64,000 nucleotides of DNA, taken from the NCBI RefSeq assembly GCF_022870865.1, contig NZ_CP091508.1, forward strand, positions 186,001-250,000, given 5' to 3'. A model generated the notes under the pieces. The model was not told the origin of the DNA. It searched no databases and worked only from the letters and a program-made list of their open reading frames with translations. The translations under genes and the position numbers were made by a program. Position 1 is the first letter of the stretch. Every line of letters starts with the position of its first letter. This DNA comes from Uruburuella testudinis (GTDB lineage: Bacteria > Pseudomonadota > Gammaproteobacteria > Burkholderiales > Neisseriaceae). Shown piece by piece: positions 14,685-56,902 of the stretch.

Positions 14685-15110
14685 ATGAGTGTCATGCAAG
14701 TTGAAGTGGTGAGTAACGAGCAAAACATCTATTCGGGTGAAGCCAGCTTTGTCGTGGTGCCGACCCAAAGCGGTGAGCTCGGTATTTACCCGCGACATGA
14801 GCCGATTATGAGTTTGGTGCGCCCGGGTGCATTGCGTTTGACCGTGCCGGGCGAAGCTGAAGAAATACTGGTAGCCGTTTCAGGCGGCCTCTTGGAAGTA
14901 CAGCCCGACAAGTTGACCGTGCTGGCCGATGTGGCCGTGCGCAGCAGCGAGATGGATGAGGCGCGTGCCGAAGAAGCCAAGAAAGCTGCCGAAGCCCGTA
15001 TTTCCCAAGCGCAAGACGACGAATCGCTGGCAAAAGCGCATGCCGCTTTGGCCGCAGCGATTGCCCAACTCAAAACGCTGGATTATATTCGCGGACAAAA
15101 AAACAAATAA
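14685..15110 (+). CDS. atpC: ATP synthase F1 subunit epsilon
   Basis: This 141-residue protein has the epsilon beta-sandwich (VEVVSNEQNIYSGEASFVVV, GELGIYPRHEPIMSLVRPG) and a two-helix C-terminal domain rich in alanine and glutamate. It regulates and couples F1. A TAAGGAGG site lies seven bases before the ATG. It is the last gene of the operon and is followed by a strong intrinsic terminator. Confidence 0.97.
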   Translation: MSVMQVEVVSNEQNIYSGEASFVVVPTQSGELGIYPRHEPIMSLVRPGALRLTVPGEAEEILVAVSGGLLEVQPDKLTVLADVAVRSSEMDEARAEEAKKAAEARISQAQDDESLAKAHAALAAAIAQLKTLDYIRGQKNK

Positions 15111-15132
15111 GGTATTTGCCTTACGATACGAA

Positions 15133-15158
15133 AGCACGGCGCAGGCCGTGCTTTTTTT
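15133..15158 (+). terminator. Intrinsic terminator of the atp operon
   Basis: AGCACGGC pairs with GCCGTGCT across a four-base loop and is followed by a run of seven T. It lies 22 bases after the atpC stop. Confidence 0.9.
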
Positions 15159-15162
15159 GAAT

Positions 15163-15202
15163 AGGCCGTCTGAAAACAAGCATCGCGCGTTTTCAGACGG
15201 CC
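15163..15202. terminator. DUS-pair hairpin at the root of the tandem array
   Basis: AGGCCGTCTGAAAAC and its inverted copy GTTTTCAGACGGCC flank an 11-base loop. The second arm is also the first unit of the tandem array that follows, so the array appears to have grown from this arm. Confidence 0.75.
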
Positions 15203-15949
15203 AAACCTTCAGACGGCCAAACCTTCAGACGGCCAAACCTTCAGACGGCCAAACCTTCAGACGGCCAAACCTTCAGACGGCCAAACCTTCAGACGGCCAA
15301 ACCTTCAGACGGCCAAACCTTCAGACGGCCAAACCTTCAGACGGCCAAACCTTCAGACGGCCAAACCTTCAGACGGCCAAACCTTCAGACGGCCAAACCT
15401 TCAGACGGCCAAACCTTCAGACGGCCAAACCTTCAGACGGCCAAACCTTCAGACGGCCAAACCTTCAGACGGCCAAACCTTCAGACGGCCAAACCTTCAG
15501 ACGGCCAAACCTTCAGACGGCCAAACCTTCAGACGGCCAAACCTTCAGACGGCCAAACCTTCAGACGGCCAAACCTTCAGACGGCCAAACCTTCAGACGG
15601 CCAAACCTTCAGACGGCCAAACCTTCAGACGGCCAAACCTTCAGACGGCCAAACCTTCAGACGGCCAAACCTTCAGACGGCCAAACCTTCAGACGGCCAA
15701 ACCTTCAGACGGCCAAACCTTCAGACGGCCAAACCTTCAGACGGCCAAACCTTCAGACGGCCAAACCTTCAGACGGCCAAACCTTCAGACGGCCAAACCT
15801 TCAGACGGCCAAACCTTCAGACGGCCAAACCTTCAGACGGCCAAACCTTCAGACGGCCAAACCTTCAGACGGCCAAACCTTCAGACGGCCAAACCTTCAG
15901 ACGGCCAAACCTTCAGACGGCCAAACCTTCAGACGGCCAAACCTTCAGA
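15192..15949. repeat. Tandem array of 47 perfect 16-bp units, each carrying one DNA uptake sequence
   Basis: The unit is TTCAGACGGCCAAACC. Forty-seven complete identical copies fill 15192-15943 (752 bases), followed by a six-base partial unit TTCAGA. Read on the minus strand, every unit contains the 10-base core GCCGTCTGAA, all in the same orientation. The two bases before the core give TGGCCGTCTGAA, not the AGGCCGTCTGAA form that dominates elsewhere. I saw no substitution in any copy. The unit has no stop codon in any of the three forward frames and no ATG, GTG or TTG. On the minus strand a TGA recurs in every frame, so long forward reading frames across it are a by-product. The rest of the gap to 16086 (15950-16086) is AT-richer single-copy DNA with the ribosome site of the next gene. 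Confidence 0.98.
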
Positions 15950-16086
15950 AATCGACAAATAAACTGGCATGTAAAATCATGTTAGGTTATGATATTTATT
16001 TTGTCGGCTAACAAAGTATGCTGCCGGGTTGGTGTGCCGGGTTGCCGGCGGCCGGAAACGGCAGCTGTTCAATTTTTGGAGACATT

Positions 16087-17433
16087 ATGAATGCAGTAGT
16101 CATCGCCGTGGTTGTGATGTTGGGTTTGTCGCTGGCGCGGGTGCATGTGGTGCTCAGTTTGCTGCTCGGCGCTTTGGCCGGCGGCCTGATGGGCGGTTTG
16201 GGTTTGGGTAAAACCATGGAAGTGTTTCAAACCGGTTTGGCCAACGGCGCACAAATCGCCTTGTCTTATGCCATGCTGGGCGCGTTTGCCGTGGCCATCG
16301 CCCATTCGGGCCTGCCGCAAACGCTGGCCAATGCGGTTATCCGCAAACTCGACAACCGCCATGTGCGCGATCAGGTGCCGGGCGGCGTTAATTGGGTGCG
16401 CTGGGGGCTGTTGCTGGCTTTGCTGGCCATGAGCATCATGAGCCAAAACCTGATTCCGATTCACATTGCTTTTATCCCGCTGATTATTCCGCCGCTGCTG
16501 CTGGTATTCAACCGCATGCAGATCGACCGCCGCCTGCTTGCCTGTGTGATGACTTTCGGTTTGGTGACCACTTATATGTGGCTGCCTTATGGTTTCGGCG
16601 AAATTTTTCTGAAGCAGATTTTGATCGGCAATATCAATAAATCCGGGCTCAATGTGGAAAACATCAATGTGATGAGCGCCATGACCATTCCGGCGCTGGG
16701 CATGGTGGCCGGGCTGCTGATTGCGGTATTTGTCAGCTACCGCGCCCCGCGGCTGTATCAAAATACCGCGGCAGACGAAGCGGCAAACCTGCATGCGGTC
16801 AAGCAGCCGAAAATCTCGGCCTACCGCAGCACGGTGGCGCTGTTGGCCATTGTGGTTTCATTTGCCGTGCAGCTGTGGGCCGATTCGCTGCTGTTGGGCG
16901 CGATGGTGGGGTTTGCCGTATTTATGGCGCTGGGCGTCGTGCGTTGGGGCGAAGCCGATGCCGTGTTTAACAATGGTGTCAAAATGATGGCGATGATCGG
17001 CTTTATCATGATTACCGCGCAGGGTTTTGCCGAAGTGATGAAAGCCACCGGCCAGATTGAGCCCTTGGTTACCGCGTCTGCCGAAATGTTTGCCGGCAGC
17101 AAAGGCATGGCGGCTTTGGTGATGTTGCTGGTGGGTTTGCTGGTCACAATGGGCATCGGTAGCTCTTTTTCAACCTTGCCGATTATTGCCGCGATTTATG
17201 TGCCGCTGTGTATCGGTATGGGGTTTTCACCCATGGCCACAGTAGCGATTATCGGCACGGCCGGGGCTTTGGGCGATGCCGGTTCGCCGGCCTCAGATTC
17301 TACTCTGGGCCCCACGGCCGGTTTGAATATCGACGGCCAGCACGATCATATGCGCGACACGGTGGTGCCGACGTTTCTGCATTACAATCTGCCGCTGATG
17401 GTGTCCGGCTGGATTGCGGCGATGGTGCTTTGA
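16087..17433 (+). CDS. Na+/H+ antiporter family membrane protein (COG2056/YuiF-like)
   Basis: I place the start at 16087 (MNAVVIAVVVMLG, 448 residues) because TTTTTGGAGAC lies just before that ATG; an in-frame ATG at 16018 has no such site. The protein has about eleven hydrophobic segments. The conserved C-terminal stretch GTAGALGDAGSPASDSTLGP, followed by DHMRDTVVPTFLHYNLPL, is typical of COG2056. Members are annotated as Na+/H+ antiporters or amino-acid permeases, and the substrate cannot be told from sequence. It is nearly contiguous with slyX. It is the first gene after the uptake-sequence array. Confidence 0.8.
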   Translation: MNAVVIAVVVMLGLSLARVHVVLSLLLGALAGGLMGGLGLGKTMEVFQTGLANGAQIALSYAMLGAFAVAIAHSGLPQTLANAVIRKLDNRHVRDQVPGGVNWVRWGLLLALLAMSIMSQNLIPIHIAFIPLIIPPLLLVFNRMQIDRRLLACVMTFGLVTTYMWLPYGFGEIFLKQILIGNINKSGLNVENINVMSAMTIPALGMVAGLLIAVFVSYRAPRLYQNTAADEAANLHAVKQPKISAYRSTVALLAIVVSFAVQLWADSLLLGAMVGFAVFMALGVVRWGEADAVFNNGVKMMAMIGFIMITAQGFAEVMKATGQIEPLVTASAEMFAGSKGMAALVMLLVGLLVTMGIGSSFSTLPIIAAIYVPLCIGMGFSPMATVAIIGTAGALGDAGSPASDSTLGPTAGLNIDGQHDHMRDTVVPTFLHYNLPLMVSGWIAAMVL

Positions 17434-56067: not shown

Positions 56068-56135
56068 GCCATTCACACAGACCACCTAACGGCGTTGGTT
56101 TGTGTGAGCTCGAAGAGGAATGGTCAGGACACCCT
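56068..56135. repeat. Truncated A element joined to the right end of a B element
   Basis: CATTCACACAGACCACCTAACGG up to GAGCTCGAAGAGGA is the left part of an A element in reverse form. It is cut off and followed by ATGGTCAGGACACCCTA, the end of a B element. Confidence 0.6.
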
Positions 56136-56902
56136 AGAGTGTCCTGACCCTTTGATTGGTAAGATTGGCGATAAAAACAAAACGTCGGTTAAAACGCGTA
56201 ACGGCAAAAAAAAAGCAACCGAGTTCCCTCTCCCGTGGGAGAGGGTTAGGGAGAGGGCGCAAAGCGGTGGGGCTTGAATAAAGGTCAGGCCGTGGTGCTA
56301 GAGTGTCCTAACCATTTATTGGTAAGATTGGCGATAAAAACAAACGTCGGTTAAAACGCGTAACGGCAAAAACAACAGCAACCGAGTTCCCTCTCCCGTG
56401 GGAGAGGGTTAGGGAGAGGGCGCAAGCGGTGGGGCTTGAATAAAGGTTAGGCCGTCTGAAATCCAAAAATGATTTTTTGATGAGTACCGGCTATCTGAGC
56501 GATGAGCACAGCAAAGATTACCCGGTGTATGCCGAGATGCTAGGGTGTCCTGACAATTCGATTTACGGGTGTATTTTGTCCCTGAAAACGCATCTGCTGC
56601 GTTAAAAAGCCTCGCAGGATGTCCAATCTTGCTGCGTTTTTTGCCCGGCATCTGCATTTTCAGGAACAAAAATCCCCTCATAAACGAATTGTCAGGACAC
56701 CCTAGAGTGTCCTAACCATTTATTGGTAAGATTGGCGATAAAAACAAAACGTCGGTTAAAACGCGTAACGGCAAAACAACAGCAACCGAGTTCCCTCTCC
56801 CGTGGGAGAGGGTTAGGGAGAGGGCGCAAGCGGTGGGGCTTGAATAAAGGTCAGGCCGTCTGAAATCCAAAAATGATTTTTTGATGAGTACCGGCTATCT
56901 GA
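56136..56902. repeat. Cluster of three R3 repeats with a B element inserted between two of them
   Basis: R3 copies lie at about 56136-56300 (shortened), 56301-56540 and 56705-56902. Each starts GAGTGTCCTAACC or close to it, includes TTGGTAAGATTGGCGATAAA, the palindrome CCCTCTCCCGTGGGAGAGGG, a DUS and ATGATTTTTTGATGAGTACC. Copies two and three are nearly identical. Nothing here looks coding. The gap 56066-57114 is entirely repeats apart from the short 3' flank of bioH. Confidence 0.8.
56543..56702. mobile_element. B-type inverted-repeat element with perfect 18-base ends
   Basis: GGGTGTCCTGACAATTCG at the left is matched exactly by CGAATTGTCAGGACACCC at the right, and TA flanks both (56541-56542 and 56703-56704). 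This is the best-preserved B copy, 160 bases long. The interior holds the smaller hairpins GCAGGATGTCCAATCTTGC and ACGCATCTGCTGCGT. Confidence 0.92.

What the first reader, a model, noticed from the sequence alone, without database searches (positions are those of the whole stretch)
15192..15949. Tandem array of 47 identical DNA uptake sequences
The unit TTCAGACGGCCAAACC is repeated 47 times without any substitution I can see, plus a six-base partial. Each unit carries one GCCGTCTGAA in the same orientation, so a single locus holds 47 uptake sequences in 752 bases. Uptake sequences are normally scattered singles or inverted pairs. The array appears to grow out of the second arm of an ordinary DUS hairpin (15163-15202) next to atpC. 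Perfect identity suggests recent expansion or active homogenisation. Possible roles: an uptake magnet that favours transfer of this locus, a binding platform or sink for the ComP pilin, or a selfish expansion favoured by transformation itself. Artefactual expansion is also possible.
Basis: partly seen in the sequence, partly recalled or inferred. Interest (0 to 1): 0.95.

Follow-up and report, generated by a model that had tools for sequence, protein, structure and literature searches.

The report
Satellite arrays of DNA uptake signals
A Neisseria chromosome carries 47 identical head-to-tail copies of the short signal that its DNA-import machinery is thought to recognise, one of at least five such arrays in this genome; they likely grew by repeat-copying errors from ordinary signals beside gene ends, and would show uptake signals behaving as satellite DNA.

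Summary
In detail: 15192-15949 holds 47 identical 16-bp units plus six bases, each unit with one 10-base DNA uptake sequence (DUS), starting in the right arm of a DUS hairpin after atpC. It is not unique. The same chromosome has at least four more arrays (90, 37, 21 and 13 DUS) with other spacers. Genomes G021 and G041 of the genus have five and at least four arrays; G063, of another genus and dialect, has three. In sister genome G035 the ftsZ site shows the same 18-bp period with another spacer, and the contig stops inside it. An assembly artefact is therefore unlikely. No non-DUS array of ten or more clean copies appeared in 2.4 Mb of sampled sequence, so the DUS seems specifically amplified. 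Best reading: DUS minisatellites, likely grown by slippage or unequal recombination; a part for transformation is untested. The 'uptake magnet' has little support: a published construct with DUS 5 nt apart transformed no better than one DUS, and the two largest arrays here lack the usual AG/AT extension. Ten literature searches showed no report of tandem DUS arrays.

The parts
14685..15110 (+). atpC, ATP synthase epsilon chain, upstream gene
   Evidence: Pfam PF02823 6.2e-27 and PF00401 2.2e-9
15138..15152 (+). intrinsic-terminator-like stem-loop with T tail after atpC (core of a longer stem in the fold)
   Evidence: RNA fold
15163..15202 (.). inverted DUS pair (GCCGTCTGAA 15165-15174, TTCAGACGGC 15192-15201) that folds as a hairpin; its right arm is the first array unit
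   Evidence: the same pair in G035 up to its contig end, eight bases into the second DUS
15192..15949 (-). array of 47 identical 16-bp units (GCCGTCTGAA plus spacer GGTTTG on the minus strand) and a 6-base partial unit
15957..15997 (+). conserved leader element just downstream of the array, upstream of the antiporter gene; holds a promoter-like match 15964-15993
   Evidence: 41 of 41 bases identical in G041, about 87-88% in G002, G003, G008, G028; promoter-like site
16087..17433 (+). Na+/H+ antiporter gene, downstream
   Evidence: Pfam PF03553 5.8e-77 and PF13726 1.6e-31

Best explanation
The array is a DUS minisatellite, one of at least five in this chromosome, that likely grew by slippage or unequal recombination from a single DUS in a terminator hairpin. 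Shown: tandem arrays, each with its own spacer, of period 14-19 bp in the 16 Neisseria arrays of five or more units examined, with one complete DUS per unit in one orientation. Shown: 13 of the 15 whose flanks I read stand beside a terminator-like stem or an inverted DUS or near-DUS. Shown: three relatives have an ordinary inverted DUS pair at the ftsZ site where this genome has 90 DUS, and the sister genome has an 18-bp array there with another spacer. Shown for sampled sequence: the arrays of ten or more clean copies are DUS arrays. Inferred: DUS is so dense that DUS-spacer-DUS direct pairs 12-18 bp apart occur (13 seen in 1.22 Mb); the two DUS copies then act as the homology for slippage or out-of-register RecA recombination, which multiplies DUS plus spacer and homogenises the array. 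Inferred and weakest: transformation, which imports DUS-bearing fragments and recombines them by homology, supplies part of the unequal exchange and of the bias that keeps the DUS intact. No benefit to the cell is needed in this model.
For: Five located arrays in G000 with distinct spacers: 47 DUS at atpC, 90 after ftsZ, 21 after a ketoacyl-synthase gene, 37 at 2343614, 13 at 2361172. Genus: 8 of 46 genomes have three exact DUS with gaps up to 30 bases, none with the reversed control. G063, with a king-like dialect, has three arrays of its own DUS types. Non-DUS arrays of at least 10 copies, at least 85% match and period 10-60: 0 in 1.16 Mb of G000 outside the window, 0 in 0.38 Mb of G041, 0 in 0.48 Mb of G021, 0 in 0.40 Mb of G011. 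The evenly spaced G041 stretches held two DUS arrays, with 12 and 11 exact DUS. A random non-coding unit would hold a DUS about 7-9% of the time. ftsZ site: G011, G021 and G045 have one inverted DUS pair; G035 has TTCAGACGGC CTTACACA TTCAGACGGC and its contig ends. G035 contig starts: 2 of 16 readable ones (20 taken, 4 masked) begin inside tandem DUS of period 19. Direct DUS neighbours in the G000 sample: 13 at spacing 12-18, none at 19-29, 25 at 30-60. Distinct changes within 16 arrays: DUS 13, spacer 26, expected DUS share 0.57, p 0.002; without the end units 7 and 18, p 0.003.
Against: G003 has a 16-unit array of GCAGTCTGAA, one base off its own dialect, so a perfect DUS is not required. 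In the three G063 arrays changes are as frequent in the DUS as in the spacer (17 and 15 distinct changes, p 0.66). Array discovery used exact DUS, which favours arrays with intact DUS. 38 of 46 genus genomes have no match to the exact triple pattern, so dense DUS alone is not sufficient (G011, with 1.19 DUS per kb, had none). Only 6 of 16 arrays have both ends within 4 bases of a DUS edge, so the seed model is only partly borne out. The 13 close direct pairs are no more than DUS placed at random at the non-coding density would give (about 17 by my own rough estimate); only the gap at 19-29 is unexpected. G021 and G011 samples have one pair each at 12-18. One 28-copy non-DUS array at 77% match lies just outside my cut-off (G041, L172). 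The 16-unit array of G021 (L071) lies within an open frame of 662 aa, so it may be coding. No two isolates of one species could be compared, so copy-number change was not observed.
Confidence: 0.6

Rival explanations
1. Uptake magnet: the array is selected, or spreads, because DNA carrying many DUS is imported more often, so the atpC region transfers preferentially.
For: A linear relation between number of DUS and competitive inhibition of uptake, and an additive DUS effect on transformation, are cited in PMC3630211 (passages) and PMC3388099 (passages). Changes are rarer in the DUS than in the spacer in 16 arrays. G000 carries ComP_DUS-domain genes.
Against: PMC3388099 (passages) cites that DUS 5 nt apart did not raise transformation over one DUS, and found a plateau at two or three dispersed DUS. 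The two largest arrays of this genome have TG, not AG or AT, before the 10-mer. 38 of 46 genus genomes lack even three close exact DUS.
Confidence: 0.15
2. Transformation-driven selfish satellite: import and out-of-register recombination of DUS-bearing fragments itself makes the arrays grow, so DUS arrays spread without benefit to the cell.
For: Only DUS arrays reach high copy number at high identity in the sampled stretches. Same locus and same period with different spacers in sister genomes. Arrays in two dialect groups.
Against: Slippage needs no uptake. The G003 array has a mismatched DUS. G063 arrays do not protect the DUS.
Confidence: 0.25
3. Regulatory repeat: copy number upstream of the antiporter promoter tunes its expression, a contingency locus.
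For: The array ends 7 bp before a leader conserved in several species that holds a promoter-like match.
Against: Other arrays lie beside terminators at gene 3' ends, for example after ftsZ, though I did not classify all of them. The array is not inside a recognised gene, so unit changes cannot shift a frame.
Confidence: 0.08
4. Assembly artefact: copy number or even the array was inflated by the assembler.
For: Perfect identity over 752 bp cannot be checked without reads. Consensus polishing could hide unit differences.
Against: Different-spacer arrays in several independent genomes. A short array inside a draft contig (G010, 7.7 units). Draft contigs that stop inside arrays.
Confidence: 0.04

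Closest known systems
DNA uptake sequences of Neisseriaceae (10- and 12-mer DUS, dialects)
   Same: Each unit holds the exact canonical 10-mer, and the genome is DUS-dense (1.38 per kb in the sample) with mostly AG-DUS.
   Different: In the passages read, DUS are described as dispersed or as inverted pairs in terminators (PMC3630211; PMC2397512). Here they are head-to-tail in tens.
Bacterial minisatellites / VNTR loci
   Same: Head-to-tail short units of near-perfect identity; in several of the arrays the edge units are the diverged ones.
   Different: The unit is the cell's own uptake signal, and the same signal is amplified at several loci with different spacers.
Inverted DUS pairs in intrinsic terminators
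   Same: The array starts at the right arm of such a pair, and three relatives have only the pair at the ftsZ site.
   Different: Units are direct, not inverted.
Correia elements and other neisserial interspersed repeats (recalled)
   Same: Abundant, recombinogenic repeats of neisserial genomes.
   Different: Each array has its own spacer and is not a dispersed copy of one element; terminal inverted repeats of that kind were not seen at the array edges printed (by eye).

Membership tests
Canonical Neisseria DUS | exact GCCGTCTGAA in every unit | tested here: met
   47 of 47 units
Canonical Neisseria DUS | extended 12-mer AT or AG before the 10-mer | tested here: not met
   units read TG-GCCGTCTGAA; AG is commonest in this genome's sample, 909 of 1175 (array included)
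Canonical Neisseria DUS | functions in uptake through ComP | not testable with these tools
   only the presence of ComP_DUS-domain genes was shown
Minisatellite / VNTR | head-to-tail units of 10-60 bp | tested here: met
   period 16, 47.4 copies, 100%
Minisatellite / VNTR | copy number varies between isolates | not tested
   one genome per species held; between species the ftsZ site ranges from a single inverted DUS pair to 90 tandem DUS
CRISPR array | variable spacers between repeats | tested here: not met
   all spacers identical within the array
Phase-variable contingency locus | repeat inside or at the promoter of a switchable gene, with frame or spacing effect | tested here: inconclusive
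   array abuts a conserved leader with a promoter-like site; no expression data

The most novel reading that the evidence does not exclude
DUS arrays are satellite DNA driven by natural transformation: the long, clean satellites seen in these genomes are built on the uptake signal because imported DUS-bearing fragments recombine out of register with DUS clusters. Arrays are thus born, lengthened and re-spaced at the ends of core genes while the signal itself is kept, a selfish consequence of bacterial sex that short-read assemblies have hidden.
Probability: 0.27. Interest if true: 0.82.

Novelty: new variant of a known kind. Interest (0 to 1): 0.64.

Why it matters
Whether uptake sequences spread by selection for sex or by molecular drive is a long-standing question. 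Arrays that amplify the signal locally, with spacers as an internal control, make it testable: compare decay of DUS and spacer within arrays, and compare array growth with and without competence. They also suggest that short-read assemblies of some Neisseriaceae lose DUS at these places, since three contigs of the draft G035 stop inside tandem DUS.

Tried and rejected
Exact two-unit search of all genome contigs: no hit. Search of 369 genomes of the class for tandem USS (AAGTGCGGT, motif recalled): one triple in one genome of 75% completeness; families were sampled thinly and unnamed, so this is inconclusive. Viral contigs: one hit, a short run of GCCGTCTGAACC in what looks like a coding repeat, judged unrelated. 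The 360-aa frame through the array (14929-16011) was rejected as a gene: it starts inside atpC in another frame, and other arrays also give long frames. The idea that all arrays are bounded by complete DUS at both ends was not borne out (6 of 16). The idea that the atpC gap of G035 proves an array there was softened: its downstream contig begins with what I take, from recall, for a Correia-like repeat end. The dialect-generic pattern is not specific: its reversed control also matched in 3 of 83 genomes (G057, G060, G062), so I used it only to find G003 and G063 and then read those arrays. Papers: PMC3388099, PMC3630211, PMC7371117, PMC2397512 and PMC2267715 were seen as passages; all others only as search listings. 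Ten paper searches showed no report of tandem DUS arrays; most subscription journals are not held, and supplements were not searched.

Full report
Observation. The array is real in the sequence given: 47 identical 16-bp units and a six-base partial at 15192-15949, 47 DUS in one orientation. It begins in the right arm of an inverted DUS pair just after a terminator-like stem behind atpC. It ends 7 bp before a 41-bp leader that is identical in G041 and about 87-88% identical in several other genomes, upstream of a Na+/H+ antiporter gene.

It is not alone. The genome (G000, one contig, 2,949,123 bases) has further DUS arrays with other spacers: 90 DUS of period 18 after ftsZ (L064), 21 of period 17 after a ketoacyl-synthase gene (L139), 37 of period 14 at 2343614 (L140), and 13 of period 16 at 2361172 (L065). 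With the 47 here that makes 208 DUS in five arrays. Of 193 forward triples counted, these arrays account for 179 by my arithmetic.

In the genus, 8 of 46 genomes have at least three exact DUS with gaps up to 30 bases, and the reversed control has none. G021 has five arrays of 5 to 16 exact DUS. G041 has at least four arrays of 11 or more exact DUS, one after a phosphoribosyltransferase-domain gene. G004 and G010 have 5 and 7 DUS in a row. G003 has 16 units of a one-base variant although its own dialect is AG-GCCGTCTGAA. G063 (another genus, commonest words AGGCAGCCTGAA, AGGCTGCCTGAA and AGGCAACCTGAA) has three true arrays of about 11, 17 and 26 units.

Sister genome. G035 is the closest (89% over the 496-base atpC query) but is a draft of about 110 contigs. 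Its atpC contig stops eight bases into the second DUS of the same hairpin, and its antiporter contig starts in what I take from recall for a Correia-like repeat end, followed by the same leader. Its ftsZ contig stops inside an array: TTCAGACGGC CTTACACA TTCAGACGGC CTTAC, the same 18-bp period as in G000 but with 6 of 8 spacer bases different. G011, G021 and G045 have one inverted DUS pair there; G041, the fifth genome fetched, shows one DUS in the stretch. Of 20 further contig starts of G035, 4 were masked, and 2 of the 16 readable ones begin inside tandem DUS of period 19. This argues against an artefact and suggests that drafts hide such arrays.

Is the DUS special? I ran TRF over stretches spread along the genomes: G000 1.16 Mb plus the window, G041 0.38 Mb, G021 0.48 Mb, G011 0.40 Mb. 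The stretches were roughly evenly spaced, except four ad hoc ones of G021; the G000 stretches were chosen after the arrays were known, and none of the four other located arrays lies in them. No non-DUS array had at least 10 copies at 85% match or better; one 28-copy array at 77% match in G041 (L172) falls below that line. The G041 stretches held two DUS arrays with 12 and 11 exact DUS; for the first, one search kept the row of period 35 with 5.9 copies, which is the same array as the row of period 18 with 11.8 copies. A random non-coding unit would hold a DUS about 7-9% of the time. Five DUS arrays in G000 would then imply nearly sixty non-DUS ones, more than twenty of them in the sample (my arithmetic); none was seen. 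Small non-DUS arrays of 3.5 to 6 copies do exist: two in G000, one each in G041 and G021, two in G011.

Anatomy and mechanism. The 16 AG-type arrays have periods of 14-19 bp; shorter runs of three units in G005 and G028 have periods of 29 and 22. By eye, 13 of the 15 whose flanks were printed (all but the G041 array after the phosphoribosyltransferase-domain gene) stand beside a terminator-like stem or an inverted DUS or near-DUS; L069 and L139 do not. One (L071) lies in a 662-aa open frame and may be coding. Direct DUS neighbours in the G000 sample number 13 at spacings 12-18, none at 19-29 and 25 at 30-60. The printed pairs share little beyond the DUS and the base or two next to it. Thirteen is not more than random placement at the non-coding density would give by my rough estimate. 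I infer that such DUS-spacer-DUS pairs are the seeds, and that slippage or unequal recombination between the DUS copies multiplies them. Array ends fit this only partly: both ends lie within 4 bases of a DUS edge in 6 of 16. Changes within the arrays fall less often in the DUS than in the spacer: 15 of 3774 against 45 of 2653 positions, or 13 against 26 distinct changes where 57% would be expected in the DUS (p 0.002; 7 against 18 without end units, p 0.003). In G063 there is no such difference (17 against 15). Ascertainment by exact DUS weakens this test.

Function. Published data speak against a strong gain from close DUS: PMC3388099 (passages) cites no gain for DUS 5 nt apart and reports a plateau at two or three dispersed DUS. 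PMC3630211 (passages) cites a linear competitive effect of DUS number, so binding avidity stays open. The units of the two largest arrays of this genome carry TG before the 10-mer, whereas AG is the common form in this genome. Periods are not multiples of a helical turn. I therefore hold the arrays to be minisatellites seeded by DUS. Transformation as a driver is possible and untested, and a regulatory effect on the antiporter is possible but would not explain arrays at 3' ends such as that after ftsZ.

Identity of the organism. 

Noticed in passing
window 56134-56455: Two tandem copies of a 163-bp segment, 95% alike.
   Followed up: no
G000:C1:2164724 and 2165220 (L199); likewise G003, G021, G035: Two ComP_DUS-domain hits stand about 500 bp apart in four of the seven genomes searched, each with a weaker third hit elsewhere. 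Whether genomes without arrays also have the pair was not tested.
   Followed up: no
G004, for example C1:575831-575897, 926243-926334, 2286038-2286125: Clusters of same-strand DUS of different dialects (TTCAGACGGC, TTCAGGCTGC, TTCAGGTAGC) at short spacing.
   Followed up: no
L207 993-1268 (G003:C1 near 1653192-1653467): 16-unit perfect array of GCAGTCTGAA, one base off the dialect of that genome, beside a terminator-like stem.
   Followed up: partly
G058:C12 end and C13 start; G061:C160, C220: 20-bp units with an overlapping inverted pair of king-like DUS; in G058 they run into the end of C12 and the start of C13.
   Followed up: partly
G000, unlocated: 14 forward DUS triples remain after the five located arrays, so a further array of roughly 16 units or several small ones probably exists.
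   Followed up: partly
L129 3994-4168 (G000:C1 near 1174000) and L250 3042-3207 (G021): Non-DUS tandem arrays with 30- and 40-bp units that share the motif AGTTTCTGC.AAGCT in two genomes.
   Followed up: no
L172 2950-3373 (G041): 28 copies of a 15-bp unit at 77% match, possibly a coding repeat.
   Followed up: no
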